Shown: positions 5,750-39,157 of the stretch, piece by piece
How positions within the stretch are numbered: the first letter of the stretch is position 1
Layout of the letters: every line of letters begins with the position of its first letter
Assembly (NCBI GenBank): GCA_030824575.1
Contig: JAVBXL010000156.1
Span: 1-64,000, forward strand
Direction of reading: 5' to 3'
DNA length: 64,000 bases
Origin: a bacterium
Lineage (GTDB): Bacteria > Pseudomonadota > Alphaproteobacteria > Sphingomonadales > Sphingomonadaceae
Translations under genes and position numbers: made by a program
Notes under the pieces: generated by a model
The model's database searches: none
What the model was told of the DNA's origin: nothing
The model's input: the letters and a program-made list of their open reading frames with translations, nothing else

Positions 5750-7009
5750 CTAACCCGCATCATTGCGACTGTCGATCACGCTTGCTGACGCATCTAACTC
5801 GGCGCGATCGCCGGCAAGGCGCGTGACCGCAAGATCCGCCGTCACATTGCCGACGGTCCGAAAAATATCAGGGACCGTCTCGACCGCGAGCAGCAGCGGC
5901 AGCAGTTCGACCGGCACGCCCATCGCCAGGCACACCGGACCGATTGTAGCAAAGAAGGAGACCTGTGCCGGCAGCCCCACCGCAGCGAGGCTGACGGGAA
6001 CCGCAATCAGCGCGCCTATGAGAAGCAGGGGCCAGGGCAGCGGCACGCCATGAAGATGCGCGAGATAGATCGCAACCGCGACATTCGCGCCGGCGCTGGC
6101 TGCGCGAAAGAGAGACACGGCAAGGGGAAGAATCAGCCCCGCCGAGGCAGGACTGACGCCGAGCCGTGGCGCTGCCGCTACCATGACCGGAAGACATGCG
6201 AGTGACGACTGTGTTCCAAAGGCGACCGCCTGGGCGGGAGCGGTCGCCTTGGCAAAATCCATAATGGACATACGCCCCGCCACGACGGCGACGACATAGG
6301 CGAGGAGGGTCGTCAGCAGGCAGATAGCGGAAATCAGTGCGATATATTGCCCGAGCATGCCCAGCGCACCACTGCCCATCCGACCGCCAGCGCCGAAGGC
6401 GAGCGCGAAGATACCGATCGGCGCGACCTTGAGGACCCACCCCACGATGATGAGCATCGTCTGCACGATCGCATCCAACAGCTTACGCAAGCCGGCGCTC
6501 AGGACCGGTTCGATCCGCGCGGCGGCGAAGCCGAAAAACAGCGCGAAGACGACGAGCGGAACGATCGCCGTCTCGGCAGCGGCCTTGATCGGATTGGCGG
6601 GTATGATGCCGCGATACCATTCGGCGGCTGCGGGCGTTGGCATCGTCACAGAGCCGGCAACCGCCTCAATGCCATGCACCGGCCACCATGCGAGGATCGA
6701 TTGGGCAGCCAGCGCCGCTGTCAGGCAGGCCCCCGTCAGACAGGCTGCGAACCAGAAGAGCGATCGGCCCGCTGCGGAACTCGCCTTGCCGCTGGCGGCC
6801 GCAGACATGACGCCGTTAGCCAACAGGCCGAAAACCAGCGGCACGACCGTCATGGTCAGTGCGTCCAGCCATAACTGGCCTATCGGCGAAAAAACGCCCG
6901 ACGCAATGCTACGAAAGGGGCCGGTAGTCCCGTTCATCGCCACTCCTGCGCCAAGTCCCAGCACAAGCGACAGGAAGATGAGAGCGCTGCCAGGGAGTCG
7001 ACGCGTCAC
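5750..7009 (-). CDS. DAACS-family dicarboxylate/amino acid:cation symporter
   Basis: An inner-membrane secondary transporter of 419 residues in the GltP/DctA family, which couples uptake of dicarboxylates or acidic amino acids to H+ or Na+. It shows the many hydrophobic helices of the family, a re-entrant loop signature resembling the serine-rich motif ('TQSSLACLPVMV'), and a C-terminal 'VGNVTADLAVTRL' in place of the substrate-binding NxxGD region. The start is GTG at 7007-7009, only 16 nt after the HDO gene stop, so it is the last gene of the cyanophycin operon. Aspartate, a cyanophycin building block, is a reasonable substrate by context, but this is inference. Confidence 0.8.
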   Translation of the reverse strand: MTRRLPGSALIFLSLVLGLGAGVAMNGTTGPFRSIASGVFSPIGQLWLDALTMTVVPLVFGLLANGVMSAAASGKASSAAGRSLFWFAACLTGACLTAALAAQSILAWWPVHGIEAVAGSVTMPTPAAAEWYRGIIPANPIKAAAETAIVPLVVFALFFGFAAARIEPVLSAGLRKLLDAIVQTMLIIVGWVLKVAPIGIFALAFGAGGRMGSGALGMLGQYIALISAICLLTTLLAYVVAVVAGRMSIMDFAKATAPAQAVAFGTQSSLACLPVMVAAAPRLGVSPASAGLILPLAVSLFRAASAGANVAVAIYLAHLHGVPLPWPLLLIGALIAVPVSLAAVGLPAQVSFFATIGPVCLAMGVPVELLPLLLAVETVPDIFRTVGNVTADLAVTRLAGDRAELDASASVIDSRNDAG

Positions 7010-7025
7010 GCGGGCGCGCCGGTCT

Positions 7026-7934
7026 TCAAACGCCTGCGCTCCGCCCTAGTGCGGCCCGATAGCGCGCGAAACAGCGCTCGCCGCATAGAAGCCGCATCAG
7101 CGCGCCCTCGGCAATAGCAGTCGCCCGGCGTGGGTCTTCCGCGACGAGCGGCCGCACGACTTCCCGATTCCAGTCCGCGCTATGCTTGACGTCCAGCACG
7201 GCATGGAGGTCGAAATAGCGACGTTCCCGCTCGCTGAGCCCAATACGCCGCAAACCCTTGGCCACAAGCGCCGAACGACCAGGCGCCGTCAATTCGATCA
7301 CGCCCAGCGCGCCCACGGAATGCCAAGCGTAACGGCGGCTGGTGGCAAGTGCGGTCATGATGTTGGCGAGCGCCAGGCTTTCCCAGACCGTATTTTCGAT
7401 GACGGGATCGACGTCCAGCGTCTCGGCCAGCGCGTCCAGCATCGGACCATGCATGCCCTTGGCATTGCCCCGGCCCATCTCGTCCCAATAGTTGCGCGCC
7501 AATTCCATCTTCGCGCTCGCGGGAAGCTTGACTTGAGTGAGCGCGACCAAATCATCGAAGCCCGCTTCGCCCGCCGCTTCTTGCTCGAAGAACCAGCGCA
7601 GTTCTTCCCTGGACGCGTCTTCGGCGAGCCAGGGAAAGAGTTCGTCGCCCTGACCGGGGCCATTATCCTTCAAGCCTTCAAACCAGGCTATGAAAGCATC
7701 AGGACCGGTCGGCGCCTGCGCGGCACGGATGGTGATCTCGCCCCGCAGCTCTTCGACGAAACCCGCTTCCAGGCGCAGCATGCGTTGGTCGCGCTCCAGG
7801 GTTGCGCGCCAGTCCGCCTGGGGAAATTGAGGCGCCAGTCGTTCCCGGTTCCAGTGCGCTAGCCCCCGCTGAAAGCTATCGGTCAGGAACTGGGAGCCCG
7901 TATCTCGTCGATCTGGATCCGTTTGGATATTCAT
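7026..7934 (-). CDS. Haem-oxygenase-like di-iron oxidase (HDO) superfamily protein
   Basis: A 302-residue predicted non-haem di-iron oxygenase ('iron-containing redox enzyme' family). Candidate ligands are E119 or E123 in 'EQEAAGEAGFDD', E152 and H162 in 'YWDEMGRGNAKGMH', E214, and H244-x3-D248-x2-H251 in 'LHAVLDVKH'. The E152-x9-H162 spacing, the 30 residues between E214 and H244, and the final HxxxDxxH match the pattern I recall for SznF, the arginine N-oxygenase of streptozotocin synthesis. The start ATG at 7932-7934 follows a GAGGACG ribosome site. It lies between a methyltransferase and a symporter in the cyanophycin operon. The substrate is not known; an arginine- or aspartate-derived amine is an inference from context. 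Confidence 0.8.
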   Translation of the reverse strand: MNIQTDPDRRDTGSQFLTDSFQRGLAHWNRERLAPQFPQADWRATLERDQRMLRLEAGFVEELRGEITIRAAQAPTGPDAFIAWFEGLKDNGPGQGDELFPWLAEDASREELRWFFEQEAAGEAGFDDLVALTQVKLPASAKMELARNYWDEMGRGNAKGMHGPMLDALAETLDVDPVIENTVWESLALANIMTALATSRRYAWHSVGALGVIELTAPGRSALVAKGLRRIGLSERERRYFDLHAVLDVKHSADWNREVVRPLVAEDPRRATAIAEGALMRLLCGERCFARYRAALGRSAGV

Positions 7935-8030
7935 TGCGTCCTCGATTTAGGAATGCAGGCAAAACGGGCGGCTTGAAGGCTCTGTTCCAGTCAATCGCAT
8001 TGATCGCTGTTAATCCCGGGACACCGGTCG

Positions 8031-9011
8031 TTAGCGCGGGGCACGCGTCATGATCGCGGCGACGACAGCGATTCGATCGACATCGCGATAATGGGGGAGT
8101 TCAAGTTCCTCCCCAAAGACGTCCGGATCAAGCTCGCGGTATCGCAGGGCGCAGCTATGGCTTTGCGCAATCTCCGACAGCTTTTCTCTGAGTAGATCTG
8201 TTCCGCCCACGATCGCGCTGCCGGTATAAAGAATGAAGCGCCCTCCTGGCTTCAAGGCGGTGGCAGCGGCACGCGCCATTTCCAGCGAAATTTCGCCGCC
8301 ATGGTTGCGGCCGCCATCCCGATAGGCGCGATGGCCTGGATCGATCACATAGGGCGGATTAGCGATCGCGACGGCGATCCACTCTTCCATGCCGGCGAGG
8401 TTGCGCCCCTGTAGAGCCGTAATAGCGCATCCTGAGGCTTCGGCGTTAATTCGGGCGAAGCGAAGTGCCCTGGGATTGATGTCGGTCATGAAAAGCCTGG
8501 TGTCGGGCACCACGCCGGCGCAGGTGACCGCGCCGACGCCCGATCCCGTGCCCATGTCCACGACGACATCGCCCGGATCGAGCGGGAATGCCGCCAGTTC
8601 CCCGATGATAAGGTCAGCGAAGCGATAGCTGTCGGGACCCAAAAACACCGAATCCTCGGCGACGGTCGGAAAGGCAGAATGCAGGAAAAGCCGTTGGTGG
8701 ACGGTCGAGACACGAACGGTCGAGCGGCGCAGCCCATCCCCCGCTGCCTCGATCGCACCGGCTTCTCCAAGCAAGCGCTCGACGGTCGGATCGATCGATC
8801 CCGGGACATAAGGCCTGCTCCATCCCAGCACATCGGTGCGTGTCATACCGGGTGTGCCACGGTGCCGGGCGAGCACGCGCTGATGGCTCGCCGGGGTCAC
8901 CGTCACGAACCGATACTCCGTTTCCGCCAAATAACGGAGGAGGAGCAGGAGGGGGTCGCCTTCGTTGGACGCGTCTATGTTAGGCGCGCGGTCTAGCTGC
9001 AGCATGTTCAT
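8031..9011 (-). CDS. Class I SAM-dependent methyltransferase (HemK/PrmC-like)
   Basis: A 326-residue methyltransferase. Motif I is 'VVDMGTGSGVGAV' (D152 to G156 region), the acidic ribose-binding residue is in 'FMTDINP', and motif IV is NPPY at 218-221. NPPY is typical of N-methyltransferases acting on planar nitrogen (amide, adenine or guanidine-like). An N-terminal domain of about 130 residues is not recognised and probably sets substrate choice. I chose ATG 9011 because it follows AAAGGTCGG; a longer GTG start at 9083 would lie within cyanophycinase. The gene overlaps the cyanophycinase 3' end by 32 nt. It is not an ordinary release-factor methyltransferase, because no prfA is nearby and the context is cyanophycin metabolism. 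Confidence 0.75.
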   Translation of the reverse strand: MNMLQLDRAPNIDASNEGDPLLLLLRYLAETEYRFVTVTPASHQRVLARHRGTPGMTRTDVLGWSRPYVPGSIDPTVERLLGEAGAIEAAGDGLRRSTVRVSTVHQRLFLHSAFPTVAEDSVFLGPDSYRFADLIIGELAAFPLDPGDVVVDMGTGSGVGAVTCAGVVPDTRLFMTDINPRALRFARINAEASGCAITALQGRNLAGMEEWIAVAIANPPYVIDPGHRAYRDGGRNHGGEISLEMARAAATALKPGGRFILYTGSAIVGGTDLLREKLSEIAQSHSCALRYRELDPDVFGEELELPHYRDVDRIAVVAAIMTRAPR

Positions 9012-9834
9012 GATCCGACCTTTCTGGCTGGGCGTCGCTCGGCCGCTGACTGGGCGTGCGGCTGTCGATGTCGAAATGGTCACCGGCGCTCAACACATGG
9101 AGATGGACGCCATGCATGGAGAGCGTGCGATCGGGGTGAGCCTTGGCAATGTTCGACTGGGTGACATGGGCGGCGTCTACCACATAGACGGCGCCGACGC
9201 CGATGACCTGGAACATGCGATCGCGTACAACGATGGCGGTATTCTCGTCGATGCCGATGCCGATGACGCGCGGATTCTGCGCGACGGCGCCGAGCAGCCG
9301 CCCGATCCGGCCGCGTTCGGCGAAATGCTGGTCGATGATCGCCCCCTCTACGAAGCCGAGGCCCGGCGCCATATGGAGGTCGCCGATACGATGGGTTTCG
9401 CGGCTGGAGCCCTTGACCAGCATGATCTCGCTCATCGCCGCAGCACCGGCCGACGTACCCGCGACCAGCCCGCCCCGGTCGTGCAGGTCGCGGACCATGG
9501 TTTCGATCGGGGTGTCGCCGATCTGGCTCGAGATGCGGAGCTGGTCGCCGCCCGTGAAAAAAATGCCCCCAGCATCATTGAACGCGTCGGCGACTTGCAC
9601 GTCGTGACTCTCCGCACGATCATGGATGTAGAGTTCGACCAGTTCTCCCACGCCCAGATCGGCGAACGCCTTCTGATAGGTGGTGAAATAGCCTTCAGGC
9701 TCGTGGCTCGCGATCGTTGCGATGATGAGCTTGCGTCCCTGCACCTCCGCGGCGATCGCCTTCAGGATGGCGCGCTTGTCCTCCTTGTCCTCATGCCCGC
9801 CGATGATGATGAGCGGCCCTATTTTCTCTGTCAT
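8980..9834 (-). CDS. cphB: Cyanophycinase
   Basis: A serine exopeptidase of 284 residues (peptidase S51) that cuts cyanophycin into beta-Asp-Arg dipeptides. The nucleophile is S128 in 'AGTSAGAAAMSE', preceded by the family's 'FTGGDQLRI' block and followed by 'IDQHFAERGR'. ATG 9834 is preferred over an upstream GTG because it overlaps the isoaspartyl peptidase stop as ATGA, indicating translational coupling. No signal peptide is present, so it acts on intracellular granules. Together with the neighbouring synthetase and isoaspartyl peptidase it makes a complete make-and-break cyanophycin cycle. Confidence 0.92.
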   Translation of the reverse strand: MTEKIGPLIIIGGHEDKEDKRAILKAIAAEVQGRKLIIATIASHEPEGYFTTYQKAFADLGVGELVELYIHDRAESHDVQVADAFNDAGGIFFTGGDQLRISSQIGDTPIETMVRDLHDRGGLVAGTSAGAAAMSEIMLVKGSSRETHRIGDLHMAPGLGFVEGAIIDQHFAERGRIGRLLGAVAQNPRVIGIGIDENTAIVVRDRMFQVIGVGAVYVVDAAHVTQSNIAKAHPDRTLSMHGVHLHVLSAGDHFDIDSRTPSQRPSDAQPERSDHEHAAARPRA

Positions 9835-10700
9835 GTATACCACTCCCTAAGATCGTCAGCATGGGTGCCGGCGCGTGGCGCATCGAGCCAGTCCGCCGCA
9901 ACCGCGACCGAAAATTGTGCGCTGTTGTGCGCAATGCCGAACCCGCCATCGGAATCGAGTACGATCGCGCCGGCTTCGCCGCCCGTCCGTTCGAGCCGGG
10001 TGATCGCCATTTGTGCGGCTGCGAGCGCTCCGTTGCCTGGAAGGGCAAAGAGGATATGCGCCGCCAGCATGCCGCGGGCGATGCTCTCGCCTTCGCCCGA
10101 CAGGGCAGTCGCGCCCGCGCGATCGTCCGCATAGAGCCCGCAGCCGGGCAAGGGCGTATCGCCTACCCGTCCGACCATCTTGCCTTCGAGACCCCCGGTT
10201 GAACCCGCTGCCGCGACATGCCCGGCCTGATCGCGCGCGATGCAGCCTACGGTATCGCATCCGCCCGGAGACGGTATCGATCCCGCATCGGCAGGCTCGG
10301 CGCCGATATGTGTCGCAAATTGCCGTGCCCCCTCGCCGACCAGCAGGATCGGCGTTTCGTCCAGCATCGCCCTGGCAACCGAAACGGGATGACGCACTTC
10401 CCGGATCGCGCCGACGCCACCGATCGCCAGCGTGTGGCCGTCCATGACAGCAGCGTCCATTTCCACATTTCCCGCAGCGTTGCGCACTGATCCCGTGCCA
10501 GCATTGAAATCAGGTAGATCTTCAAGCACACGCACGGCGGCTTCCACGGCGTCGATCGCCGAGCCACCTTGTGCGAGAATATCACCGCCAGCCTTTGCCG
10601 CCTGAGCGCATCCCGCTGCGAAACGAGCGCGATCCTGGCGCGGGATGGATCGCGCGCCGCCATGCACCACCAAGGTCCATGCGCTCTTATTTGTCGGCAC
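9831..10700 (-). CDS. iaaA: Isoaspartyl peptidase/L-asparaginase (Ntn hydrolase)
   Basis: A 289-residue type 2 asparaginase that hydrolyses beta-aspartyl dipeptides. The autoprocessing site is 'GCDTVGCIARD', with T150 the predicted new N-terminal nucleophile. Substrate-binding signatures 'VGRVGDTPLPGCGLYAD' and 'GEGE' follow, and the N-terminal 'VVHGGA' is typical. The GTG start at 10698-10700 overlaps the cphA 3' end by 14 nt, and the stop overlaps cphB by 4 nt. In this operon its likely job is to split beta-Asp-Arg released by cyanophycinase into aspartate and arginine. Confidence 0.9.
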   Translation of the reverse strand: MPTNKSAWTLVVHGGARSIPRQDRARFAAGCAQAAKAGGDILAQGGSAIDAVEAAVRVLEDLPDFNAGTGSVRNAAGNVEMDAAVMDGHTLAIGGVGAIREVRHPVSVARAMLDETPILLVGEGARQFATHIGAEPADAGSIPSPGGCDTVGCIARDQAGHVAAAGSTGGLEGKMVGRVGDTPLPGCGLYADDRAGATALSGEGESIARGMLAAHILFALPGNGALAAAQMAITRLERTGGEAGAIVLDSDGGFGIAHNSAQFSVAVAADWLDAPRAGTHADDLREWYT

Positions 10701-13461
10701 GCACGGCCCCTCTGCTTAAGCTCTCGGGTGTCTCCGGCTGGAACGCCATGACCTGGCCATGCACCTCTTCAACCCGGGTTGGGAAGAGAAGGACCAAATC
10801 GCCGGGACGAGCCAGACGGAGCGTGGCAAGGACGGCGTCACGCTCCTCAAGGACGAAGCTGACCTGCCTGGCGGATGCGCCTGCCGACCGCGCGCCTTTT
10901 TCGAGCAGTCTTAACACCTCGCCGCGGGGACGGCCGCGACCGTCGGGCCCTTCGCGAAAGACGATATGGTCCAGCATGGGAACGGCCGTCGCGCCCATTT
11001 GCATGATGTCCTCGTCACGCCGGTCCCCGGGCATGCTGACCATGCCGATGCTTCGCCCGCCGCCTGTGTTCAAATTGCCCAGACAGTGGCCGAGCGCGCG
11101 CATACTGGCGATATTATGCGCATAGTCGATGACCACCCGGAAGGGATGGACGTCGATGATGTTGAAGCGGCCGGGATTGTCCGTGAAATTCGACGTAAAG
11201 CGCTTGAGCGGTTTGGCGATCTGTTCCGGCGTGACGCCAAGGGCAGTGGCGACGGCGCAAGCGGCCAGCGCATTTTCGACATTGAATGCCGCCGCGCCCC
11301 CCAGCGATGCGGGCATGTCGGACACGGGGATGATCGCCGTCCTCTGATCGCCTTCGTACAGGACAAGGCTGGCCGCGCCACTGTCCTCTTCGAGCAGGAT
11401 CGCTCGGCCGCTTGCTGCGACATGGGCTGCCATTACGGGGTGCGCGATCGAGCCCGTGCGGCTGAACCAGATGATGCGGCCACGGCTTCGCCGCGCCAGT
11501 GCACGGACACGCCGGTCATCGAAATTAAGGACTGCAAAGCCGCGCTGCGCGACGCTGCGGACCACCACGGCCTTGACCGCTGCCAGATCCTCCAGCGTAT
11601 CAATCCCGCCCACGCCCAGATGATCTTCGCTGATATTGAGCACCGCGCCGACCGTCGCGTAATCGAACCCCAAGCCTTCGCGCAATATGCCGCCCCGCGC
11701 CGTCTCCAGGACAGCGACATCGACAGCAGGATTATGCAGCAGCATCCTGGCACTTTTTGGCCCACTGGAGTCGCCCGACTTTAGGAGCAAGTCGTTGACA
11801 TAGACACCGGTGGTGGTGGTGAGGCCGACCGTCTGATAGATGCCGCGCAGGATCGCGGCAACCATCCGCGCCGTCGTGGACTTGCCATTCGTACCGGTGA
11901 TTGCAACGACCGGTATCCGGCTTGTCATCGCTTGCGGATAAAGCATAGCGATCACCGGTGCCGCGACATCGCGCGCCGGACCTTCGGACGGGGCCAAGTG
12001 CATGCGGAAGCCAGGCGCCGCGTTGACCTCGACGATACCGCCGCCGGTCTCGTTGACGGACCGCGCTATGTCGGGCGACAGAAAATCGATGCCGGCGATA
12101 TCGAGCCCGATTGCGCGCGCCGCCATTTCAGCGATTAGGCGATTGTCGGGATGAACCTTCTTAGTGCGGTCGATAGCAGTGCCGCCGCTCGACAGATTGG
12201 CGGTGCCACGCAGCAAGACATGTTCGCCCGCGCCTGGAACGGTCTCGATCGTCCTGCCCTGCTTTTCTAACGCGTCTACTAGCGCGGCATCGACCCGGAT
12301 CTTCGTCAGCATACTTTCATGCCCGTCGCCACGGCGAGGATCGGCGTTGACGAAGGCGATCAGTTCTCCAACGGATCGGATGCCATCGCCCACGACATGC
12401 GCCGGCACGCGTTCCGCCACCGCGACTAGTTTGCCATCGACTACCAGCATGCGGTGATCGTTGCCGGGAAGATGCTTTTCGACGATGACCCGGCTGCTGA
12501 TCTTGGCCGCATGGTCGAACGCTTTGCCTATGTCAGCGGGCGTCTCGACGAAGGTGCTGACGCCGCGCCCGTGATTGCTGTCGAGCGGCTTAATGACGAG
12601 GGGCCCGTCCAGTTTCTGCGCTGCCGCCAGCGCGTCCTCGACGGTTCTGACGACGATACCCTTGGGCACCGGGAGGCCGGCGGCGGTCAGCAGCGCCTTG
12701 GTCGCATCCTTGTTGCCCGCAAGCGAGACCGCGATCTGCGGAGTGCGTCCGGTGATGCTCGCACGCAAACGCTGCTGCCGGGTGCCCCAGCCAAGCAGGA
12801 GCAACCCCTGCTGGTCCAGCCGGGCGACTGGTATCGTGCGACGCCGGGCAGCCTCGGCCAAAGAGGCCGTGGTCGGCTCCAGCGCCGATCGTCTGCGAAG
12901 CGCGATCAAATGCTCGACCGTCGCGCCGACATCCAGGCCGTCGCCCCCGACCGGGGCAGGCAGCAGCGCCCCGCCATCCCATCGGCGGAACCACACCGGG
13001 AGCAGCGCCGCGACCAGCGCGATGGCGGCGGCGCCGGCAGCTAGGCCGACATCTTCCTCTAGATAGCGGTACAGGATGTTGTAGACGCCGGGCCTGCCCG
13101 GCACGCTGCGGGTCTTGCCGCGGGATACGGGGCTCCCCGCCAGCGTCTGCAATTCCAGCGCCACATGCTCGATGACATGGCCGAGCCACGTGCCCTCGCG
13201 CAAACGTCTCGGAAACCCGCCCTCATGCGGGCAGCTGCAGCCGTGACGCGCCAGCCCGGGAAGAGCGGCAAGAAGGCGGTCGGTAAAGTCGGGCAGTCTA
13301 TCGGTCGGCGAGGCTTCCAGTTCGCCTAGCGCGACCTGGATGCGGATCATGGGCAGGCGACCAAAGAGATGCGGCCCACGATAGACGTTCCTCGCGAGGA
13401 CATGCAGGCCTATACGTTTCTCACCGTCGGCAAAACCTAGGTCGTTCATGTTAACATCCAT
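10687..13461 (-). CDS. cphA: Cyanophycin synthetase
   Basis: A 924-residue ATP-dependent ligase that builds the poly-Asp backbone and attaches Arg side chains. It has an N-terminal domain (1-160), an ATP-grasp domain (about 210-490; 'KPLDSNHGRGVST', 'GIDFLSPD', 'VEVNAAPGFRMH') and a Mur-ligase-like domain starting with the P-loop 'ITGTNGKSTT' (about 523-530), followed by 'ETARGGILREGLG'. The length is near the family norm of about 870-900. ATG 13461 is used; ATG 13449 is also possible. It is followed without gaps by iaaA and cphB, which is the expected storage-polymer operon. Confidence 0.93.
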   Translation of the reverse strand: MDVNMNDLGFADGEKRIGLHVLARNVYRGPHLFGRLPMIRIQVALGELEASPTDRLPDFTDRLLAALPGLARHGCSCPHEGGFPRRLREGTWLGHVIEHVALELQTLAGSPVSRGKTRSVPGRPGVYNILYRYLEEDVGLAAGAAAIALVAALLPVWFRRWDGGALLPAPVGGDGLDVGATVEHLIALRRRSALEPTTASLAEAARRRTIPVARLDQQGLLLLGWGTRQQRLRASITGRTPQIAVSLAGNKDATKALLTAAGLPVPKGIVVRTVEDALAAAQKLDGPLVIKPLDSNHGRGVSTFVETPADIGKAFDHAAKISSRVIVEKHLPGNDHRMLVVDGKLVAVAERVPAHVVGDGIRSVGELIAFVNADPRRGDGHESMLTKIRVDAALVDALEKQGRTIETVPGAGEHVLLRGTANLSSGGTAIDRTKKVHPDNRLIAEMAARAIGLDIAGIDFLSPDIARSVNETGGGIVEVNAAPGFRMHLAPSEGPARDVAAPVIAMLYPQAMTSRIPVVAITGTNGKSTTARMVAAILRGIYQTVGLTTTTGVYVNDLLLKSGDSSGPKSARMLLHNPAVDVAVLETARGGILREGLGFDYATVGAVLNISEDHLGVGGIDTLEDLAAVKAVVVRSVAQRGFAVLNFDDRRVRALARRSRGRIIWFSRTGSIAHPVMAAHVAASGRAILLEEDSGAASLVLYEGDQRTAIIPVSDMPASLGGAAAFNVENALAACAVATALGVTPEQIAKPLKRFTSNFTDNPGRFNIIDVHPFRVVIDYAHNIASMRALGHCLGNLNTGGGRSIGMVSMPGDRRDEDIMQMGATAVPMLDHIVFREGPDGRGRPRGEVLRLLEKGARSAGASARQVSFVLEERDAVLATLRLARPGDLVLLFPTRVEEVHGQVMAFQPETPESLSRGAVRADK

Positions 13462-13496
13462 TGGCAGCAGGGCCAGGTCCGCGTCTGTGGAAATAA

Positions 13497-13691
13497 TTAT
13501 CGCATATCATTCGATGATTGCGTCTGCGCGATCGCCGCAGCGGCAATAAGGCTCTCTCCGGTGCCAACGGCAGCCTCCGGGGTCATTGTAACGGCGACGC
13601 CGTCAGGTCCGTCGAGGATGACGAGGCCGTCTTCCGCGCTAGCGACACCGGGCGTGGTCTGCGCTTGCGGACCGGAAACTTGCTCTGTCAT
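13497..13691 (-). CDS. Small acidic protein upstream of cphA
   Basis: A 64-residue peptide of unknown function beginning MTEQVSGPQAQ, with a core 'DGLVILDGPDGVAVTMTPEAA' and no Cys, signal peptide or membrane segment. Its ATG (13689-13691) overlaps the stop of the HTH remnant upstream as ATGA, and it ends 35 nt before cphA. It looks like a real short gene with strand and spacing of the operon. A small accessory or regulatory protein of cyanophycin metabolism is possible, but nothing in the sequence shows it. Confidence 0.65.
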   Translation of the reverse strand: MTEQVSGPQAQTTPGVASAEDGLVILDGPDGVAVTMTPEAAVGTGESLIAAAAIAQTQSSNDMR

Positions 13692-14020
13692 TGCAGGACC
13701 CTTGATAGAGACGGCATGGGCCTCACAAGGCCATCGTCAATGTAACGATATGCGGGATCAAATTGCCCCTGCGCCAGTCGCTCGGGTTCAAATATCTCGA
13801 CAGGCGAGGAACGGAAGACGCACAACCGGTCTTCGCGCAGCGATCGCAGCATCCTGTTCACATGAACATTGTTGAGGCCGCAGATCTGATATAGCGGCTC
13901 CCCCGCCCCCAGGCTCAGGCCGCGTTTGTCTCTCAGGAAGCGATCGATGAACATTATGAAACCTTGCCGAAGCGTCGGCAGGACAACCGCGCACCGTCCA
14001 AACGGACGAGCTCGGTGCAT
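13688..14020 (-). pseudogene. Crp/Fnr-family regulator remnant, HTH only
   Basis: The C-terminal part of a Crp/Fnr protein: 'CGLNNVHVNRMLRSLREDRLCVF' is the recognition helix-turn-helix, followed by the 'PERLAQGQFDPAYRYID' tail. The cyclic-nucleotide-binding-like sensor domain of about 140 residues is absent. Before residue 35 ('MFIDRFLRDKRG') the frame has no family similarity. It is therefore a truncated relic, or a small HTH-only protein starting at ATG 13954. It is translationally coupled to the small protein ahead of cphA, so translation through it may still matter. Confidence 0.7.
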
Positions 14021-14800: not shown

Positions 14801-14936
14801 CTGGCCGCCCGGCAACTACCGACCGGCCCGCGGGTTCTGGTTCCGATTTCACGCCCATGGCGACGCAGCCTTGTGCCCGGTTACGCCGGGCGAGGTTCTC
14901 CGTCCCCATCATCCGCTTTTAAACCGAGGACCCAAC

Positions 14937-17162
14937 ATGGCCAAGAAACCCAGTGCACCCAAGCCGTCCGCCAGCAAGGCACCTGTGACGCCCGCTGATC
15001 TGGCCGGAACGGACATCGGCGGGGAGTCCCCGCAGAAGGCTGCGGCCGTCCCAACCGACGCCATGATATCCATGTCGTTCGCCGAGCCGCAGGCCGCGGG
15101 CGGCGATACCCATCAGATCGTAGGTGGTGATATCGCGACCCTCACCACCCAGAACGGCATCCCGGTCGCAGATGACCAGAACAGCCTGAAGCAAGGCGCA
15201 CGCGGCCCAACGCTCTTGGAGGACTTCCACTTCCGCGAGAAAATCTTCCATTTCGACCATGAGCGCATCCCCGAACGGGTCGTTCACGCGCGCGGCTACG
15301 GCGCCCACGGCTTCTTCGAGCTGACCGACAGTCTGGCCGACGTCAGCCGCGCAGACATCTTCCAGCGCGTGGGCGAGAAGACGCCGGCTTTCGTCCGCTT
15401 CTCGACTGTCGCGGGCTCTAAAGGCTCCTTCGACCTCGCTCGCGACGTTCGGGGCTTCGCGGTCAAGCTCTATACGCAGGAGGGCAACTGGGACCTTGTC
15501 GGCAACAATATCCCCGTCTTTTTCATCCAAGATGCGATTAAGTTTCCAGACCTCGTCCATGCGGCCAAGCCCGAGCCGGATCGCGCCTTCCCCCAGGCGC
15601 AGACCGCGCACGATAATTTCTGGGACTTTGTCAGCCTGACGCCTGAGAGCTTTCACATGATCATGTGGACCATGTCGGATCGCGCGATCCCGCGCTCCTT
15701 TCGCACAATGGAGGGCTTTGGTGTCCACACGTTCCGCCTCGTCGATGCCAAAGGCAAATCGACCTTCGTCAAGTTTCACTGGAAGCCCAAGCAGGGCCTG
15801 CAGTCGGTGGTCTGGAACGAAGCGGTCAAGATCAACGGTGCCGACCCCGACTTCCACCGCCGCGACCTGTGGGACGCGATCAACAGCGGCGACTTCCCGG
15901 AATGGGAACTGGGCGTGCAGTTGTTTGACGATGCTTTCGCCGACAGCTTCGACTTCGATGTACTAGATGCGACCAAGATCATTCCCGAGGAGCTGGTGCC
16001 GATCCGTGTCGTCGGCCGGCTGGTCCTAGATCGGGTCGTCGACAATTTCTTCGCCGAGACCGAGCAGGTTGCTTTCTGCACCCAGAATGTGCCGCCGGGC
16101 ATCGATTTCTCGAACGATCCGCTGTTGCAGGGGCGCAACTTTTCCTATCTCGACACCCAGATCAAGCGGCTGGGCAGTCCGAACTTCACCCATATCCCTA
16201 TCAATGCGCCCAAATGCCCGATGGCGCATTTCCAGCAGGACGGGCATATGGCGATGCGCAACCCCGTGGGCCGCGCGAATTACGAGCCCAACAGCTGGGG
16301 TGCCGCGCAAGGCGGCCCGCGCGAGGACCCAGTGCGTGGCTTCCCTAGCTTTGCCGAAACCGCCAGCGGCCCCAAGCAGCGTGTGCGATCCGAAAGCTTC
16401 GCCGATCATTACAGCCAGGCGCGGCAGTTTTTTGTCAGCCAGACGCCGATCGAACAGAAGCATATTGGCGACGCGCTGGTGTTCGAACTGTCGAAGGTTG
16501 AACGGCCCGACATTCGATCGCGCACCGTCTCGCACTTGCTAAACATCGATCCGACGCTGGCCGCGATTGTCGCAAATGGCCTTGGCCTTGCGCTTCCCGA
16601 CCCTGCCGTGGCGGCACGCACGCCGATCATCGATCTGCCGGCGTCCGACAAGCTCAGCATAGTCAAGAATGGACCCGACAGTTTCAAGGGCCGCAAGCTT
16701 GGCATCCTACTGAGCGACGGCGCGGACGCGGCCATCGTGAAAGCGTTGATCGCGGCGGTCGATGGCGAAGGCGCGGTCTATGAGGTGATTGCGCCGAAGA
16801 TCGCCGGCGTTACTTTATCCGACGGCACCACGGTCGCGGCCAAGCACAAGATCGACGGCGGTCCATCGGTATTGTTCGATGCGGTCGCCATCGTCGTCTC
16901 GGCCGAAGGTGCAGCCCTGCTGTCGCTCGACGCCGCAGCCAAGGACTTCGCCACCGATGCCTTTGCACATTGCAAATATATCGGCATCAGCGCCGAGGCG
17001 GAGACAATCTTCGTCAAGGCTGGCATCGCAGACGATCTGGACGAGGCATGCCTGCCTTTAGCCAAGGCGGCCGATGCGAAGACCTTCCTGAAGGCTTGCC
17101 GAACCTTGCGCTACTGGCCACGTGAATTGGTCGTCGATCTCGACGCGCAGCCCGAAGCGTAG
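14937..17162 (+). CDS. katE: Large-subunit catalase (HPII/KatE type)
   Basis: A 741-residue clade 2 haem catalase that dismutates H2O2. The catalytic His is H117 in '[14 protein letters not shown]', the catalytic Asn lies in 'GNNIPVFF', and the haem-binding Tyr is in 'RNFSYLDTQ'. After about residue 570 comes the flavodoxin-like C-terminal domain typical of large-subunit catalases ('[22 protein letters not shown]'). The ATG at 14937 follows an AGGA ribosome site; the frame is open further upstream but has no better start. The first 75 residues are a Lys/Ala/Pro-rich extension. No signal peptide is seen, so it is cytoplasmic. It stands alone, transcribed away from the cyanophycin operon. Confidence 0.93.
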
Positions 17163-19934: not shown

Positions 19935-21152
19935 ATGGTTGCTGCGGAAGACAGTCGGAAGGGGAGAGGGCGTCTATTGGCATCGTCATCTAGATCTAGC
20001 TCCGCAGCACCGCAGGGTGCCGCACATATATTGCAGCTAGATCGAGCGCTCTATCTTCTCAGCAAGGCCGATGCAGACGTCTCCATTGCCGTCGAGTATT
20101 TCGACGACGTGTCTGCGCTGCGTGCCGGCGTTCCGATCCTCCACGAACAGGACAAGAACTCCGTCCGTTCGGGAGCCGACGTACTTGGGGACCGGAGCAA
20201 GGCCTTGTGGCGCACGTTGGAGATATGGCTGGATCTGCTACCGGGGCCGGATGGGCGGCTATGCGACCGCTACCTACTCGTCACGAATACGGTAGCCAAA
20301 GGCGCAATCGTCTCGGCGTTCAAGGCAGTAGGGGCCGGTATCAAAAGCCCGTCGGACGCCGTCCTCGTCCTTCGTTCGGCTGCCCGGCTGCGGTCAAAAT
20401 CGGCATCGAAGATCCAGACTACGATCGATACCGTACTCGCGAACGACGACGAGAGGCTCGAGCAGCTGGTGTCCCGTATCGAAATCGTTGAGGGATTCGA
20501 CATCGAAGTCGCTCGCCGGGAGATGGTGAACGGGTTCGCCATCCATCCGAGAGTCGATGCTACGTTTGTTCTCGATAAGCTGCTCGGTTGGATTACCGGC
20601 GTGCTGCGCAATCTCTGGGCCGCCCAACAGCCGGGTGTCATTTCGCGGCAAGCCTGCGTTCTTCAATGCAGGTCGATCGAAGAACAGTTGGCGAGGCAGC
20701 GCTTTTTGCCCAAGCCCGCCGGCGACGTGGTGGTGACCGAAGTCGATCGCGATCGAGCGCTGGCTCGCCCCTTCGTCGAGCACCTAAGCCGTATCGATCT
20801 TGAAGAAGATTGGGTTCTAGAGGCAGTCGAGCACTTCGTTCAATTCAATATCGAAAAGCATCGGCTCGCGGCCGAAGGCGAGATACCGGTCGAGGAATGG
20901 TTCAATCGTGCCGAGCGCCTCGGCCAGAGATGGCGAAATATCGTTCGACGCGCGAAGATGGATCTGCCCACCGGATCGCGCACGGAAGTAGGTCGGCAGA
21001 TACTGGCGCAGGCTACCTTCGACCACCACGAAAACTTGGCCGGGCAGGATTGCCACGAGTTGTACATGACGTCCGGTCATTATCATCGATTGGCCGATGA
21101 CGATAAAGTCTGGTGGGATCCGGATTTCAAGCCGATCGATGACCGCTCGTGA
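19935..21152 (+). CDS. ABC-3C system component with N-terminal nuclease-like domain
   Basis: A 405-residue protein, first of three tightly packed genes. Residues 28-80 ('GAAHILQLDRALYLL', 'IAVEYFDDV', 'ILHEQDKNS') resemble the PD-(D/E)XK core of Cap4/DUF4297-type dsDNA nucleases, with candidate residues E54, D57/D58 and Q72-x-K74. The remaining 300 residues are alpha-helical and unrecognised, as expected for the C-terminal region that docks to the other ABC-3C proteins. By family knowledge, ABC-three-component systems are predicted conflict systems in which this protein is the effector. The start at 19935 has no clear ribosome site. Its 3' end overlaps the next gene by 4 nt. Confidence 0.6.
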   Translation: MVAAEDSRKGRGRLLASSSRSSSAAPQGAAHILQLDRALYLLSKADADVSIAVEYFDDVSALRAGVPILHEQDKNSVRSGADVLGDRSKALWRTLEIWLDLLPGPDGRLCDRYLLVTNTVAKGAIVSAFKAVGAGIKSPSDAVLVLRSAARLRSKSASKIQTTIDTVLANDDERLEQLVSRIEIVEGFDIEVARREMVNGFAIHPRVDATFVLDKLLGWITGVLRNLWAAQQPGVISRQACVLQCRSIEEQLARQRFLPKPAGDVVVTEVDRDRALARPFVEHLSRIDLEEDWVLEAVEHFVQFNIEKHRLAAEGEIPVEEWFNRAERLGQRWRNIVRRAKMDLPTGSRTEVGRQILAQATFDHHENLAGQDCHELYMTSGHYHRLADDDKVWWDPDFKPIDDRS

Positions 21153-21640
21153 AAATGGATCATGAAGAGACCGTTCTTCGAAATCCGGCGCTCGGCGCGC
21201 GTACCTTCTGGCTATTCGCCAATGCCTTCTCAGAGAACAAATCGGGTGACCCGCCAGGCCTCCCCATTTTCTTGATAGCTGCAGGCATGCTGTATCACCG
21301 GAGTTCGGTTCAGAAGATCAAGGGGATGAACTTCGAAAGCGGGCTTTTGAAAGCGGTGTCGGATCGTCCGGATATCATCGCGGGCCTTCAGTACCGGATC
21401 GAAAGCTATGCCCCTGAGGCACTCCACGCACTGCAAGTGGGCGTGGCAGCGGGCCTTCTTCTTCGAGAGGGAGGCGAGGGACTGCCTGCGTTTAGGGCGA
21501 TCGGCCCCGCGTTGCCGCTCGCGATTCGGGAAGCGAGCGGCCACGTGAACGAGATGTTCCTGGCTGCCAAGCGACTGGGGACTTGGTTCGCCATCGAATC
21601 CCTAGAGAGCCTGCAGCGTCGTTTGATGATCGAGTTCTGA
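21149..21640 (+). CDS. ABC-3C system middle component
   Basis: A 163-residue mostly helical protein ('[37 protein letters not shown]') that matches the small middle component of ABC-3C systems in size, position and composition. The GTG start overlaps the upstream stop as GTGA; an ATG lies 6 nt further on. It ends 1 nt before the ATPase gene, so all three are co-translated. Its presumed role is to link the ATPase to the effector. The call depends partly on context. Confidence 0.6.
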
Positions 21641-21641
21641 T

Positions 21642-23648
21642 ATGAAGCTTCTGATCCACCAACTTATTGTCTGGCCCGTCGATGTCAGCTTTGCGCCACG
21701 CGTCGTCAAGTTCGACCCGACCAAGGTGAGCGTGATCACCGGATGGAGTGCAACCGGAAAGTCGTCGATCATATCGATCATCGACTACGTCCTGGGGGCG
21801 AGCACCTGCACGATTCCGGTCGGGGAAATTCGGGATTATGCGTCTTGGTATGGGCTGGTGCTCGAGACCGATACGGGCCCCATGCGGGTGGCCCGGCAAA
21901 AGCCCGACGGTAGGCAAGCGTCTCAGGAATATTGGATACAGCAGGGCGCCGACACCGAAACACCGCTGCCGGCTCTTCCTATCGGAAATGCGAAAGCCGC
22001 CCACTTCAAGTTAATGATGGACACCCTATCCGGCCTGTCGAACCTGCAACTCGATCCGGAAGGCAAGGGGTTTAACGAGCGCGCGTCCTTCCGGGATATG
22101 GCCGCGTTCAATTTCCTCCCGCAGCACATCGTCGCCAATCCCTACACGATGTTTTTCAAAGCCGATTCCTCGAACCACCGGGAGAAACTTCGCAACGTCT
22201 TGCCGCTTGCGCTTGGGATTCTGACCAACGAGGATTTGATGCGGATGCATAGCCTGCACCTGCTCCAGGACCAGTTGCGTAAACTGGAGGCAGATTTGCG
22301 AATCCGTCGGAACGGCCTGCAAAATTGGCAGTCCAACGCGGTAGGCGCATTCTATCTCGCCCAGGAACTCAATCTTCTGCCCGCCGGCGGTGTGCCCGAC
22401 GATCTGCGATCCCTCATCGCATTGCTACAGAGTGTCGTGGATGCAGGCGGTACTACCGTCGCGGCGTCGGGACGGGTGTCGGTTTCGGTACAGCGGTTGG
22501 AAGACATTCGAAGGCGCGAGCAGGTGCTCGATGCCGAGATTGCGGCGAACAAGCGCAGGATGCGACGCCTAAAGAGCCTGCGCCGCTCGGTGTCGGACTA
22601 TGACGACGTGCTTCAGGATCAGCAGAGCCGCGTTGCCGGAGTGGGTTGGTTTAAAAGCGCCGTGACCGCAGAGAAGTGCGTACTTTGTGGCTCGGACTCC
22701 GACGAGGCACGGGTTGCGCTCGAAGCTCTCGATGGCCCGATTTCGGAACTGTCGGATCTGACCGCCGGAACGGCTTCGACCGCCCCCATGGTCGATAACG
22801 AAATTCTCGGAATCGAGCGCGCCTTAATCGCATCGGAACGCGCGATGCTGGAGTTGCGGCGAACCCGAAAGGAGTTCGAGACGGTAGTAGATCGAGAGCA
22901 GGGCCGGAGCCAAAGTCTGGAAAACGTCTATCGCTTTATCGGTCGAACCGAACAGGCATTGGCGATGCTCGGGGACGTGGAAGGAGACGACGGGCTGCAA
23001 TCCCAAGCAAACGCTCTGCAAAATCAGATCGGCGATCTTCAACGACAGCTGAACGCTGCGGATCGCAAGATCCGGGAAGAGGCCAAGGCGAAGCAAATCT
23101 CGGATTATATCGTCCGGTTTGTCGATGCCCTCGAGGTTGCGGGTGCCGAAGGTAAACCCGTTCTCGACCACCGCGAACTCAATCTAAAGTTCGAGCGAGA
23201 GGGCGCTAACAAACCGGACTATCTTTGGGAGATCGGCAGCGGCGAGAACTGGATGGCCTACCACTTGGCTACGCTCCTCGCAGTTCAAGGGGTGTGCCTC
23301 CTTCGGAAGGCAAACAATCCCGTTCCTTCCTTTCTCGTGATCGACCAGCCGAGCCAAGTTTATTTCCCAAGCGATACGTTCGACGTACTCATCGCCGATG
23401 CCGACGGCGCCTCGGCCCGCAAGAGCGCGCGAGGCCGCAAGCCGCTGGACGACCTCCAGAGTACACGGCAGATATTCGCTGCGCTCGCCCGAGCCCAGGA
23501 TAAATTCGATAATCAACTCCAGATTATCGTCCTTGACCACGCCGATCACCATGCTTGGGGCGGTCAGGATAATGTTTTCGAGGCGCAGAACTGGCGCGGA
23601 CTTAATGACTCGCTGATCCCCAACGCGTGGCTTCCTGACGCCGAGTAA
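21642..23648 (+). CDS. DUF3732 ABC-type ATPase of an ABC-3C system
   Basis: A 668-residue SMC/Rad50-like ABC ATPase. The Walker A is 'GWSATGKSS' (residues 34-42) and the Walker B region is '[15 protein letters not shown]' (D568), the characteristic DUF3732 signature. The middle (about 190-510) is coiled coil, interrupted by a zinc-hook-like 'CVLC' (C346, C349). It is the third gene of the operon, with a 1-nt gap after the middle component. Based on the family, it probably senses a foreign nucleic acid structure or protein and licenses the nuclease-like partner. It ends 40 bp from a convergent Shedu gene. Confidence 0.85.
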
Positions 23649-23688
23649 GCGAAAGGCAGCTATCTTGCGCGTCTGATGGTGACTTGTC

Positions 23689-24954
23689 TTAGCGCCCGGT
23701 GTCGTCCAATCCATGGTTTTTGCGACGTTTGAGTGAGGCAATGATATTGTCGAGCCGGCGCAGCAGATCGTCATAGGTAATGATGTCGATCATGTTCGTA
23801 TACTTGCGTTTGATAACTTCAAGGTCGGCACGTTGCCCTTCGTCGAAGGCATCATGGCCATTGTCCTTGCGGTCGCGTCCCAGGATGCACATCGCCTTGG
23901 GATTGGTGATGCGGATTTCCAGTTTGGGTGGCAGTACCGTTTTGTATTTTTCGGTTAGCTTGTCTTCGCTCGCCCGGCCGCCCTTGCTCAGGTGGAACAG
24001 ATATTTCTCGGCCTGCATGATCGTGCCGGAGAGGATACCGGTCGGTACATAGTTATCGCGGTAGCGCGTCTTCCTGAGCAGGATATTTTGCTCCGGCTTC
24101 TTGATCTCGATGACATCAATATTGCCGCCCACATCGACCAGTGCGATGTCGATCTGGCGGTGGATGACCTTCCCCTTCGTTGTGTACCTGTCCTCGATCG
24201 GCAGCTTCTCGATCACCGCAATGTATTTAGGGAAGATCAACGGGAGAATGGCGAGCAGCTGCTTCTGCCATTCGTCCTCACTCTTGTCGCCGGCCTTGAG
24301 CCAGGCCTTAAGGGTGTCGCGGACCAGCTGAAACTTTTCAATCTCGGTAGTGAGCAGTTCCTTAGCTTGCAGCGGCACGTCGCTGCGCGGCGATTTGCGC
24401 TTGCTGAGATATACCTCGTACTGCGCCCGGAAGTCACGTTTGGGCTCGATATATTCGCCAATGATGTTCGTGACCCGCGCCTCGGCATAGCGATTGAGTT
24501 CATAGGTGTTGGGGAATTGCGCAATCAGATCCTCGAACACCTCGATCGGGATTGCATCGTCACGTTTCCCGCCAATGAGGATTTCCTCCGCGTCGGGAAT
24601 AAGCTTGGAGATCCGCTTGAAAATCGAGATGTTACGTTCGGCGACGAACAGCTTGCGACGCCATTCGACCCCGCTTTTGGCAATGAGCACGTCTTGGTCG
24701 ATGCCTAGCTTGCGGCCGGCGATGAGGTAGTGACTAGCGCCGGCCGAGGCGAGGCGGAAGCGATAGGTGAAGGGGGAATCGTCATCAATCTCATCTTGCG
24801 TCGGCTTTTCGATTAGGTCGTCGGAGATAAAGGTGAACACCTGGCTGATCTCGACTTCGCCGGTCTTCAGCTGCTCCATGATCCAGGCATTGCCTTGGAG
24901 CGTCGCTTCATATTCGAGCACCACGCCGCTGCGGCTAACCTTATAATCGGCCAT
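23689..24954 (-). CDS. sduA: Shedu-type (SduA, DUF4263) anti-phage nuclease
   Basis: A 421-residue protein with the Shedu PD-(D/E)XK core: 'EDEWQKQLLAILPLIFPKY' (E228, Q230), 'HRQIDIALVD' (D269) and 'IDVIEIKKPEQN' (E283-x-K285). The N-terminal 200 residues are a separate sensor-like region. Known Shedu proteins are single-gene defence nucleases, here read by homology of motif only. I chose ATG 24954 because a GGGGAGA element lies 7 nt upstream; a longer frame to 25101 adds 49 residues without such a site. It is convergent with the ABC-3C operon, which strengthens a defence-island reading. Confidence 0.8.
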   Translation of the reverse strand: MADYKVSRSGVVLEYEATLQGNAWIMEQLKTGEVEISQVFTFISDDLIEKPTQDEIDDDSPFTYRFRLASAGASHYLIAGRKLGIDQDVLIAKSGVEWRRKLFVAERNISIFKRISKLIPDAEEILIGGKRDDAIPIEVFEDLIAQFPNTYELNRYAEARVTNIIGEYIEPKRDFRAQYEVYLSKRKSPRSDVPLQAKELLTTEIEKFQLVRDTLKAWLKAGDKSEDEWQKQLLAILPLIFPKYIAVIEKLPIEDRYTTKGKVIHRQIDIALVDVGGNIDVIEIKKPEQNILLRKTRYRDNYVPTGILSGTIMQAEKYLFHLSKGGRASEDKLTEKYKTVLPPKLEIRITNPKAMCILGRDRKDNGHDAFDEGQRADLEVIKRKYTNMIDIITYDDLLRRLDNIIASLKRRKNHGLDDTGR

Positions 24955-25571
24955 TTCATTCTCCCCATTTGCTCCCGTTCCTAAGCCCACAACGTCAACC
25001 CGGCCAGTGGCAGACGTGACCGCTATAGTCGGGAATTCGAGGGCAGTGCTCACCAACGCCCAGAACCGCCCGACACTGAGAGCGGCCTGAACGTCCGACA
25101 TTGGAAGCTATCCAGCCCTTCGCTGGGTCGACCAGCAACGATCGAAATGTCCCACTTCCCGTCTACCGATGTAGACCCAAGCCAGACCCTCAGCCCTGAT
25201 TCTGCCGATCCCAAGTGCTGCCCGACCGCTTTCCCATTTAGAATGCACAAATCTGGCCGTAATGAGATTGTCCGCTGTTCGTGAAAGAAGTAAAAAGCTG
25301 GACGCATAGCCGCTACGCTGTCCCGAGAACGGGGGGGGCAATTCAACAGTCGGGCAGCGTGGCGTCTATTTGCTTCCGACCTCTTTGCACGCCACTGCAC
25401 CCGGCTCTGCGTCCTCTCCTCTCCTTAGACGCAAATGAGCAAGGGCGATGAATCTCTTGGTCGTGAAAGACGCTTTGCGGGTTTCCCGGTTACCGCCCCC
25501 AAGACGGTTGACAGTCGGCTCATCGGTTGACAGAAGAGGAAAATCGCCCGAATGGGCTTGGGGATGATGCA
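24955..25571. other. Gene-free stretch between Shedu and the XRE module
   Basis: About 615 bp with overlapping short frames on both strands but no recognisable domain. It must contain the divergent promoters of the Shedu gene and of the gene at 25572. Composition and frame breaks suggest decayed intergenic DNA. Confidence 0.5.
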
Positions 25572-33009: not shown

Positions 33010-33357
33010 GTGGTCAAACTCAACTTCCGTATCGACGATGCGCTGCATACGCGCCTGGTGCGGCGCGCCAATGACGCTGACCTTACCCTTTCCCAATTCT
33101 CGAGATCTGTCTTGGCGCAGGCCGCCGATCCTGATCGTGGCTATATTTTCACGTCGAATGACGAAATCCTGGCGACCTGTCTCCAGATCTATTCGATCCT
33201 TGTAGTCGCAGTCGGTCGCCGCTCCCCCGAGGCAATCGAGCAAGGAATGGAGGAGGCGCGCATCCTCCTCGAACAGCGCGGACTGCTCGCGCCTCAGCCG
33301 GATGAAGGCGGCGGCTTTGCCACACATGATCCTCGTTCGCAGGGTGACCGGCGATGA
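33010..33357 (+). CDS. Ribbon-helix-helix relaxosome accessory protein
   Basis: A 115-residue protein starting with GTG after GATGGAG. The first 35 residues ('VKLNFRIDDALHTRLVRRANDADLTLSQFSRSVL') form a MetJ/Arc-type ribbon-helix-helix DNA-binding domain. It overlaps the TraD start by 4 nt, so it is the first gene of the transfer operon. By position it is likely to bind oriT and recruit the relaxase or coupling protein, like TraM/TrwA-type factors. Confidence 0.75.
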   Translation: MVKLNFRIDDALHTRLVRRANDADLTLSQFSRSVLAQAADPDRGYIFTSNDEILATCLQIYSILVVAVGRRSPEAIEQGMEEARILLEQRGLLAPQPDEGGGFATHDPRSQGDRR

Positions 33358-38871: not shown

Positions 38872-39157
38872 GTGGTTAGTCCCGGCATTGATCGTTCAAT
38901 TAAGAGGAATTTGTAAATTCATTAAATTACCTGGCATTTACAGGTATATTATACACGCGGAGCATTCCAAATGACGATTTTAGGACGACTGCTTGAAAGG
39001 GGCATAGCGGAGTTCGACTTTCATTGTTCCGGTAATGTGCGATTTCCAACTATATTTATTAACGTCCAGAAAGAGCATTGATAGAAGACGTGATAATTGC
39101 AGTTATCATATATGCGGAATTGACGCCGTTCTATAAGGTGCGGTACAGCCAGCGCCG

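What the first reader, a model, noticed from the sequence alone, without database searches (positions are those of the whole stretch)
5750..13691. Cyanophycin operon fused to an HDO oxidase and an N-type methyltransferase
cphA, iaaA and cphB give synthesis and full breakdown of cyanophycin to Asp and Arg. Yet the same continuous operon (overlaps of 4-32 nt, or gaps under 100 nt) carries an NPPY methyltransferase, an HDO-type di-iron protein and a DAACS symporter. In streptozotocin synthesis, SznE methylates arginine and SznF, an HDO enzyme, N-oxygenates it. The combination suggests a pathway turning stored arginine or beta-Asp-Arg into a modified product, or methylated/oxidised polymer, with transport. 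No such system is known to me. This is inference from gene content.
Basis: partly seen in the sequence, partly recalled or inferred. Interest (0 to 1): 0.85.

Follow-up and report, generated by a model that had tools for sequence, protein, structure and literature searches.

The report
Cyanophycin operon with arginine-modifying enzyme pair
A bacterial operon that makes and breaks down the nitrogen-storage polymer cyanophycin also carries a methyltransferase and an iron oxygenase that often travel together and seem to have joined such operons several times, which suggests a pathway turning stored arginine into a modified, still unknown product.

Summary
In detail: six intact co-directional genes (13461-5750, minus strand) encode cphA, iaaA, cphB, an NPPY methyltransferase (MT), an HDO di-iron protein and a DAACS symporter. 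MT and HDO are a recurring pair: 40 of 79 MT loci have an HDO within 1 kb, from two HDO subfamilies. Most MT loci (76 of 79) show no cphA within 5 kb, and in the window's own family MT and HDO usually lie apart. Yet MTs next to cphA fall in about six places on the MT tree, in several gene orders, and all six genes recur in order on a Sphingobium yanoikuyae plasmid. Independently, DDAH-like (dimethylargininase-like) genes lie beside MT or HDO in six loci and are fused to the MT on one plasmid, pointing to arginine's guanidine. The HDO resembles the N-oxygenases HrmI and RohS and keeps six metal ligands. Best reading: a guanidine N-methylation/N-oxygenation module recruited to cyanophycin operons to use stored arginine or beta-Asp-Arg. 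Substrate and product are inferred, not shown. New variant of a known kind.

The parts
10687..13461 (-). cphA, cyanophycin synthetase (924 aa)
   Evidence: TIGR02068 1047 bits, cut-off 850
9831..10700 (-). iaaA-type isoaspartyl peptidase (289 aa)
   Evidence: PF01112 241 bits
8980..9843 (-). cphB, cyanophycinase (287 aa)
   Evidence: TIGR02069 271.6 bits, cut-off 126.6
8031..9011 (-). NPPY class I N-methyltransferase (326 aa from ATG 9011; ORF open from GTG 9083)
   Evidence: PF05175; invariant NPP and DPDVFGEE in 34 aligned rows; model pLDDT 92.9
7026..7934 (-). HDO-type di-iron protein (302 aa)
   Evidence: PF14518 155.5 bits; E119, E152, H162, H244, D248, H251 kept in 62-63 of 63 rows; model closest to HrmI
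5750..7009 (-). DAACS/SDF-family symporter (419 aa)
   Evidence: PF00375 219.6 bits; aligned with an aspartate transporter, NMDGT motif not kept
13497..13691 (-). 64-aa ORF upstream of cphA, possible extra member
   Evidence: 50% identical over 60 aa to an ORF about 0.2 kb downstream of the HDO in G011; no Pfam family

Best explanation
The operon couples a complete cyanophycin cycle to a recurring two-enzyme module that modifies arginine. CphA stores Arg and Asp as polymer; cyanophycinase and IaaA release beta-Asp-Arg and then Arg and Asp. The MT then N-methylates a planar nitrogen, most likely of the guanidine, and the di-iron HDO N-oxygenates the same group, giving an N-methyl/N-hydroxy-arginine-type metabolite. 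The DAACS protein moves aspartate or an acidic product. In other genomes the same pair stands with a DDAH/arginine-deiminase-like hydrolase or with amino-acid ligases instead of CphA. Shown: gene content, family and predicted fold, metal ligands, the MT-HDO pairing, repeated pairing of the MT with cphA and of MT or HDO with DDAH-like genes. Inferred: arginine as substrate, order of steps, product, and the transport role.
For: MT-HDO pairing: 40 of 79 MT loci have an HDO within 1 kb, of two subfamilies; 17 of 18 MT genomes in a 398-genome phylum draw carry PF14518, 15 of 18 within 0.8 kb. cphA link: nine cph-linked MTs need 6 changes on a 100-row tree, 5 forced by well-supported branches; gene orders; MT in 7 and HDO in 6 of nine genomes with this cphA type, above background (p 4e-5 and 0.002, relatedness ignored). 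Arginine: a DDAH/ADI domain fused to the MT on a Legionella sainthelensi plasmid and such genes beside MT or HDO in six further loci, best curated hit dimethylargininase for all six proteins scanned, though below cut-off. N-oxygenase-like HDO: HrmI, then RohS, lead the fold search.
Against: 76 of 79 MT loci show no cphA within 5 kb. In the family draw MT and HDO are adjacent in only 2 of the 18 genomes that have both (coordinates). Of 20 family HDO stretches, one has the MT, one a DAACS, one a DDAH-like gene and none cphA. G661 and G540 have the MT beside cphA but no PF14518 match anywhere. No DDAH-like gene was found in the window's genome, with one probe and no positive control. HrmI acts on lysine, and CtCADD, not an N-oxygenase, ranks above SznF in the fold search. 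No biochemistry.
Confidence: 0.5

Rival explanations
1. MT and HDO modify cyanophycin itself or the beta-Asp-Arg dipeptide (methylated or hydroxylated side chains), changing solubility or turnover, rather than free arginine.
For: In G661 and G540 the MT stands directly before cphA in genomes without PF14518. In mangotoxin an HDO acts on an Arg-containing peptide (PMC13185094, passages).
Against: HrmI, the closest solved HDO, binds a free amino acid (PMC13108848, passages), and R200, E214 and R220 outside the metal ligands match HrmI. MT and HDO occur in many genomes where no cphA was found.
Confidence: 0.15
2. The pair acts on another amino acid, for example lysine (as HrmI does) or an amide side chain, and its link with cphA reflects shared nitrogen-storage or stress regulation, not a shared metabolite.
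For: HrmI is a lysine N-oxygenase (PMC13108848, passages) and the best match by sequence and fold. MT relatives include Gln/Asn-amide methyltransferases (HemK, AerE; the AerE substrate is recalled). LigD lies within 5 kb in 13 of 79 and catalase in 3 of 79 MT loci.
Against: DDAH/ADI-family fusion and neighbours; repeated tandem placement with cphA.
Confidence: 0.22
3. The adjacency is incidental: accessory genes pile up on mobile elements and plasmids of these bacteria.
For: The window carries conjugation and copper-resistance genes. Several cph operons lie on plasmids, and five of the six plasmid cph regions read, of 21 records with a match, lack MT and HDO.
Against: cph-linked MTs lie in about six places on the MT tree, mostly co-directional with short gaps or overlaps. 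In a published control none of 955 genomes with cphA1 and folA had the two clustered (PMC10206079, section 6); folA is a housekeeping gene, so this control is imperfect.
Confidence: 0.13

Closest known systems
Three-gene cyanophycin cluster cphA1-iaaA-cyanophycinase
   Same: Core three genes in the same order, also on plasmids of Rhizobium, Mesorhizobium, Pelagibacterium, Deinococcus and Sphingobium; the clustering is published (49 of 153 genomes, PMC10206079)
   Different: Those five plasmid regions have no MT or HDO
Mangotoxin cluster (MboA HDO, MboC/MboD ATP-grasp ligases, MboE arginine deiminase)
   Same: HDO with an amino-acid ligase and arginine chemistry; related loci also carry DDAH/ADI-family genes
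   Different: No methyltransferase was named in the passages seen; MboA makes an alkyne; here the ligase is CphA and the window has no deiminase-like gene
SznE/SznF of streptozotocin
   Same: Arginine methylation followed by HDO N-oxygenation is the proposed logic; HDO ligand pattern agrees
   Different: No cupin domain; SznF is a distant match (E 0.07); SznE was not compared
HrmI/BelK lysine N-oxygenases
   Same: Closest solved HDO by sequence (2e-43) and fold (TM 0.79-0.82 by query length)
   Different: About 27% identity; HrmI makes 6-nitro products from lysine; substrate here unknown
PrmC/HemK, GenN-type and AerE N-methyltransferases
   Same: Class I N-methyltransferase fold, NPPY
   Different: Full-length fold matches are only moderate (TM 0.53-0.62); far below PrmC cut-offs; own DPDVFGEE motif

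Membership tests
Cyanophycin metabolic operon | CphA and cyanophycinase above curated cut-offs | tested here: met
   1047 against 850 and 271.6 against 126.6 bits
Cyanophycin metabolic operon | Isoaspartyl dipeptidase of the IaaA family in the same cluster | tested here: met
   PF01112; the PRK10226 equivalog cut-off is not reached
Cyanophycin metabolic operon | Polymer made in the cell | not testable with these tools
   Needs chemistry
HDO superfamily | Heme-oxygenase-like fold with 3 His/3 carboxylate ligands | tested here: met
HDO superfamily | Di-iron cofactor and O2 activation | not testable with these tools
   Needs purified protein
SznF-type nitrosourea synthase | C-terminal cupin domain | tested here: not met
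   302 aa, PF14518 only, helices to residue 295
SznF-type nitrosourea synthase | Fourth carboxylate ligand (3H/4C) | tested here: inconclusive
   E214 aligns with SznF E281 (number recalled as a ligand), but HrmI also has Glu there and is 3H/3C
HrmI/BelK lysine N-oxygenase | Lysine N6 oxidation | not testable with these tools
   Sequence about 27% identical
Mangotoxin-type HDO cluster | Stand-alone ATP-grasp ligases and arginine deiminase with the HDO | tested here: not met
   None among the operon genes; no DDAH-like match in the genome with one probe
PrmC/HemK methyltransferase | Score above equivalog cut-off | tested here: not met
   54.4 against 199.1 bits
Dimethylargininase (DDAH), for neighbour genes in other genomes | Score above equivalog cut-off | tested here: not met
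   Best hit dimethylargininase for all 6 proteins scanned, all below cut-off; hence 'DDAH/ADI family' only

The most novel reading that the evidence does not exclude
Cyanophycin is the feedstock or scaffold of a dedicated biosynthesis: arginine of the polymer or of beta-Asp-Arg is N-methylated and N-oxygenated by a non-heme di-iron enzyme to N-hydroxyguanidine-type compounds that could release reactive nitrogen species or bind metals under stress, so that a storage granule is also a depot for a specialised metabolite.
Probability: 0.15. Interest if true: 0.88.

Novelty: new variant of a known kind. Interest (0 to 1): 0.62.

Why it matters
Cyanophycin is usually treated as a plain nitrogen reserve. 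Repeated joining of its operon to an N-methyltransferase, and in some loci an N-oxygenase, suggests that some bacteria tie it to specialised arginine chemistry. The MT-HDO pair is widespread (Pseudomonas, sphingomonads, Komagataeibacter, Variovorax and others), I found no description of it with cyanophycin in the library searched, and it is small enough to rebuild in vitro, so the idea can be tested directly.

Tried and rejected
Streptozotocin membership: rejected for lack of a cupin domain. PrmC function: rejected by score. Pure chance co-location: judged unlikely but kept as a rival. Profile comparison of the two HDO subfamilies gave no significant score (probability 2%, E 0.023), so their kinship rests on both matching PF14518. 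The small ORF has no Pfam family and one weak PHROG hit (E 0.0056). A Crp-type HTH hit at 13688-14020 is below its Pfam cut-off, and Crp proteins from related loci did not match the window. A first search of the genome with PF00268 served only to place the window.

Literature: searches. No paper holds cyanophycin with 'methyltransferase' and 'heme oxygenase-like' or with 'methylated arginine'. One search returned 698 papers, of which the 15 listed concern medical methylarginines; the rest were not seen. The one paper was opened and is unrelated. Subscription journals and bioRxiv are mostly not held, so absence is weakly shown. Seen: PMC10206079 (passages, section 6), PMC13108848 (passages), PMC13185094 (passages, section 7), PMC5670224 (passages); others only as listings.

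Full report
What is there. On the minus strand run cphA (13461-10687), iaaA (10700-9831), cphB (9843-8980), MT (9011-8031), HDO (7934-7026) and a DAACS symporter (7009-5750), overlapping or with gaps under 100 nt. CphA and cyanophycinase exceed curated cut-offs; IaaA, MT, HDO and symporter are assigned by Pfam. The genome is a draft with 8.9% estimated contamination. A nearly identical operon (MT 99%) lies in a Sphingopyxis MAG (L106), so the window is probably from Sphingopyxis (inference). The window also carries conjugation genes, a copper-resistance stretch and defence-like genes: accessory DNA.

The enzymes. The HDO model (pLDDT 89.4) is closest to HrmI, then RohS; CtCADD and SznF follow. 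HrmI also leads by sequence (2e-43). E119, E152, H162, H244, D248 and H251 are kept in 62-63 of 63 aligned rows, which include the window and some duplicate loci; so are R200, E214 and R220, which match HrmI in the alignment. E214 aligns with SznF E281 (recalled as its extra ligand), but HrmI has Glu there too and is 3H/3C (PMC13108848). The MT model (pLDDT 92.9) matches a gentamicin N-methyltransferase and AerE along most of its length, but only moderately (TM 0.53-0.62). NPP and E-DPDVFGEE are invariant in 34 rows; that the acidic motif binds a guanidine is my inference. The symporter keeps D..RT..N of TM8 of an aspartate transporter but not NMDGT (the role of these residues is recalled).

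MT and HDO as a pair. Leaving out L106, a near copy of the window, 79 were examined: 40 have an HDO within 1 kb, 21 of the window's subfamily and 19 of a 462-aa, mostly Pseudomonas-type subfamily that is also PF14518. In 398 phylum genomes the MT occurs in 18 and PF14518 in 137; 17 of 18 MT genomes have PF14518 (p 8e-8), 15 within 0.8 kb; G400 and G434 have it elsewhere and G295 lacks it. In 149 family genomes HDO is in 26, strong MT (E below 1e-70) in 20, both in 18 (p 4e-15); there, however, the two are adjacent in only 2 of 18 (G000, G017). These tests ignore relatedness.

Link to cyanophycin. cphA is rare in the family (4 of 149; 16 of 347), and 3 of 79 MT loci have it within 5 kb, some on short contigs. 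Yet the MT stands with cphA in these arrangements: all six genes on S. yanoikuyae pKN1; MT-DAACS-cphA-iaaA-cphB in G565; MT-cphA-cphB in G661; MT-cphA-iaaA-cphB in G540; cphA-iaaA-cphB-MT in Sphingomonas JC676; MT-HDO convergent with the cph genes in two closely related Novosphingobium; HDO-MT divergent from cphA-cphB in G433, another alphaproteobacterial family. In G434, of another class, an HDO of the second subfamily stands beside cphA with the MT 0.7 Mb away. On a 100-row tree the nine cph-linked MTs need 6 changes, 5 forced by well-supported branches. Of the 16 cphA genomes in 347, nine have the window's type of cphA (100-53% identity): MT adjacent in 4, HDO adjacent in 1; MT anywhere in 7 (in G654 as two pieces on two contigs), HDO in 6. 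In the other seven (44-46%) neither lies in the stretch read. Enrichment over the 149-genome draw: p 4e-5 (MT) and 0.002 (HDO). Plain three-gene operons are common: five of the six plasmid regions read, of 21 records with a cphA match, lack MT and HDO.

Pointer to arginine. On a Legionella sainthelensi plasmid a DDAH/ADI-family domain is fused to the MT, beside HDO, LigD and Ku. Such genes also lie beside the MT in S. naasensis, G126 and G114, beside the HDO in G129 and G053, and with both in a myxococcal MAG. For all six proteins scanned the best curated hit is dimethylargininase, below cut-off; the best PDB hit of the one searched is a DDAH. They are a minority: 2 of 79 MT loci and 1 of 20 family HDO stretches. 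The window's genome gave no match to one such probe, without a positive control. Other partners near the 79 MTs, within 5 kb: LigD 13, DAACS 8, a GARS-like ATP-grasp 5, GCS2 5, another ATP-grasp-like protein c70 4 (assigned from weak hits), catalase 3.

Reading. The idea I favour is a guanidine-modifying module (N-methylation plus N-oxygenation) fed by, or building on, stored arginine where it has joined cph operons. The nearest logic is mangotoxin: HDO, ATP-grasp ligases and arginine deiminase on an Arg peptide (PMC13185094, passages and section 7). That paper reports 1447 HDOs near ATP-grasp ligases in at least 25 cluster types, so HDO-ligase pairing is known in general; I found no report of the cyanophycin case in the searches named. 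The MT is tied to cphA more often than the HDO is, and in G661 and G540 it stands beside cphA without any PF14518 match in the genome, so methylation alone may suffice there. Substrate, order of steps and product remain unshown.

Noticed in passing
window 19935-25101: ABC-three-component genes (CTD7, MC3, DUF3732/AAA) followed by a Shedu SduA-type protein: a defence-like cluster.
   Followed up: no
window 33354-40390 and 41072-63463: TrwB coupling protein, TrwC relaxase and an integrase, then multicopper oxidases, a heavy-metal P-type ATPase and CopB: a mobile, copper-resistance stretch.
   Followed up: no
window 13497-13691; L079 10666-10839: A 64-aa ORF upstream of cphA has a 50% identical relative about 0.2 kb downstream of the HDO gene in G011.
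   Followed up: partly
G000:C6:14287-15153 (L066): A second HDO copy (72% identical, one in-frame stop in the matched stretch) without MT, cphA or other profiled partners in the 20 kb read.
   Followed up: partly
L157, L159, L165, L167, L173, L178, L185: In these Pseudomonas loci HDO, MT and LigD (end-joining ligase) follow each other within about 60 nt; LigD and Ku also stand near the pair on a Legionella sainthelensi plasmid. Reason unknown.
   Followed up: no
L192 (Novosphingobium sp. ES2-1 plasmid p2): An MT copy lies about 1.4 kb from genes annotated Cas1 and Cas9.
   Followed up: no
window 13688-14020: Possible Crp/Fnr-type HTH remnant upstream of cphA (19.5 bits, cut-off 27); full Crp-like genes lie near cphA in L133 and L135.
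   Followed up: partly
window 14871-17162: HPII-type catalase upstream of the operon, on the other strand; catalase is also near the MT in 3 of 79 loci.
   Followed up: partly
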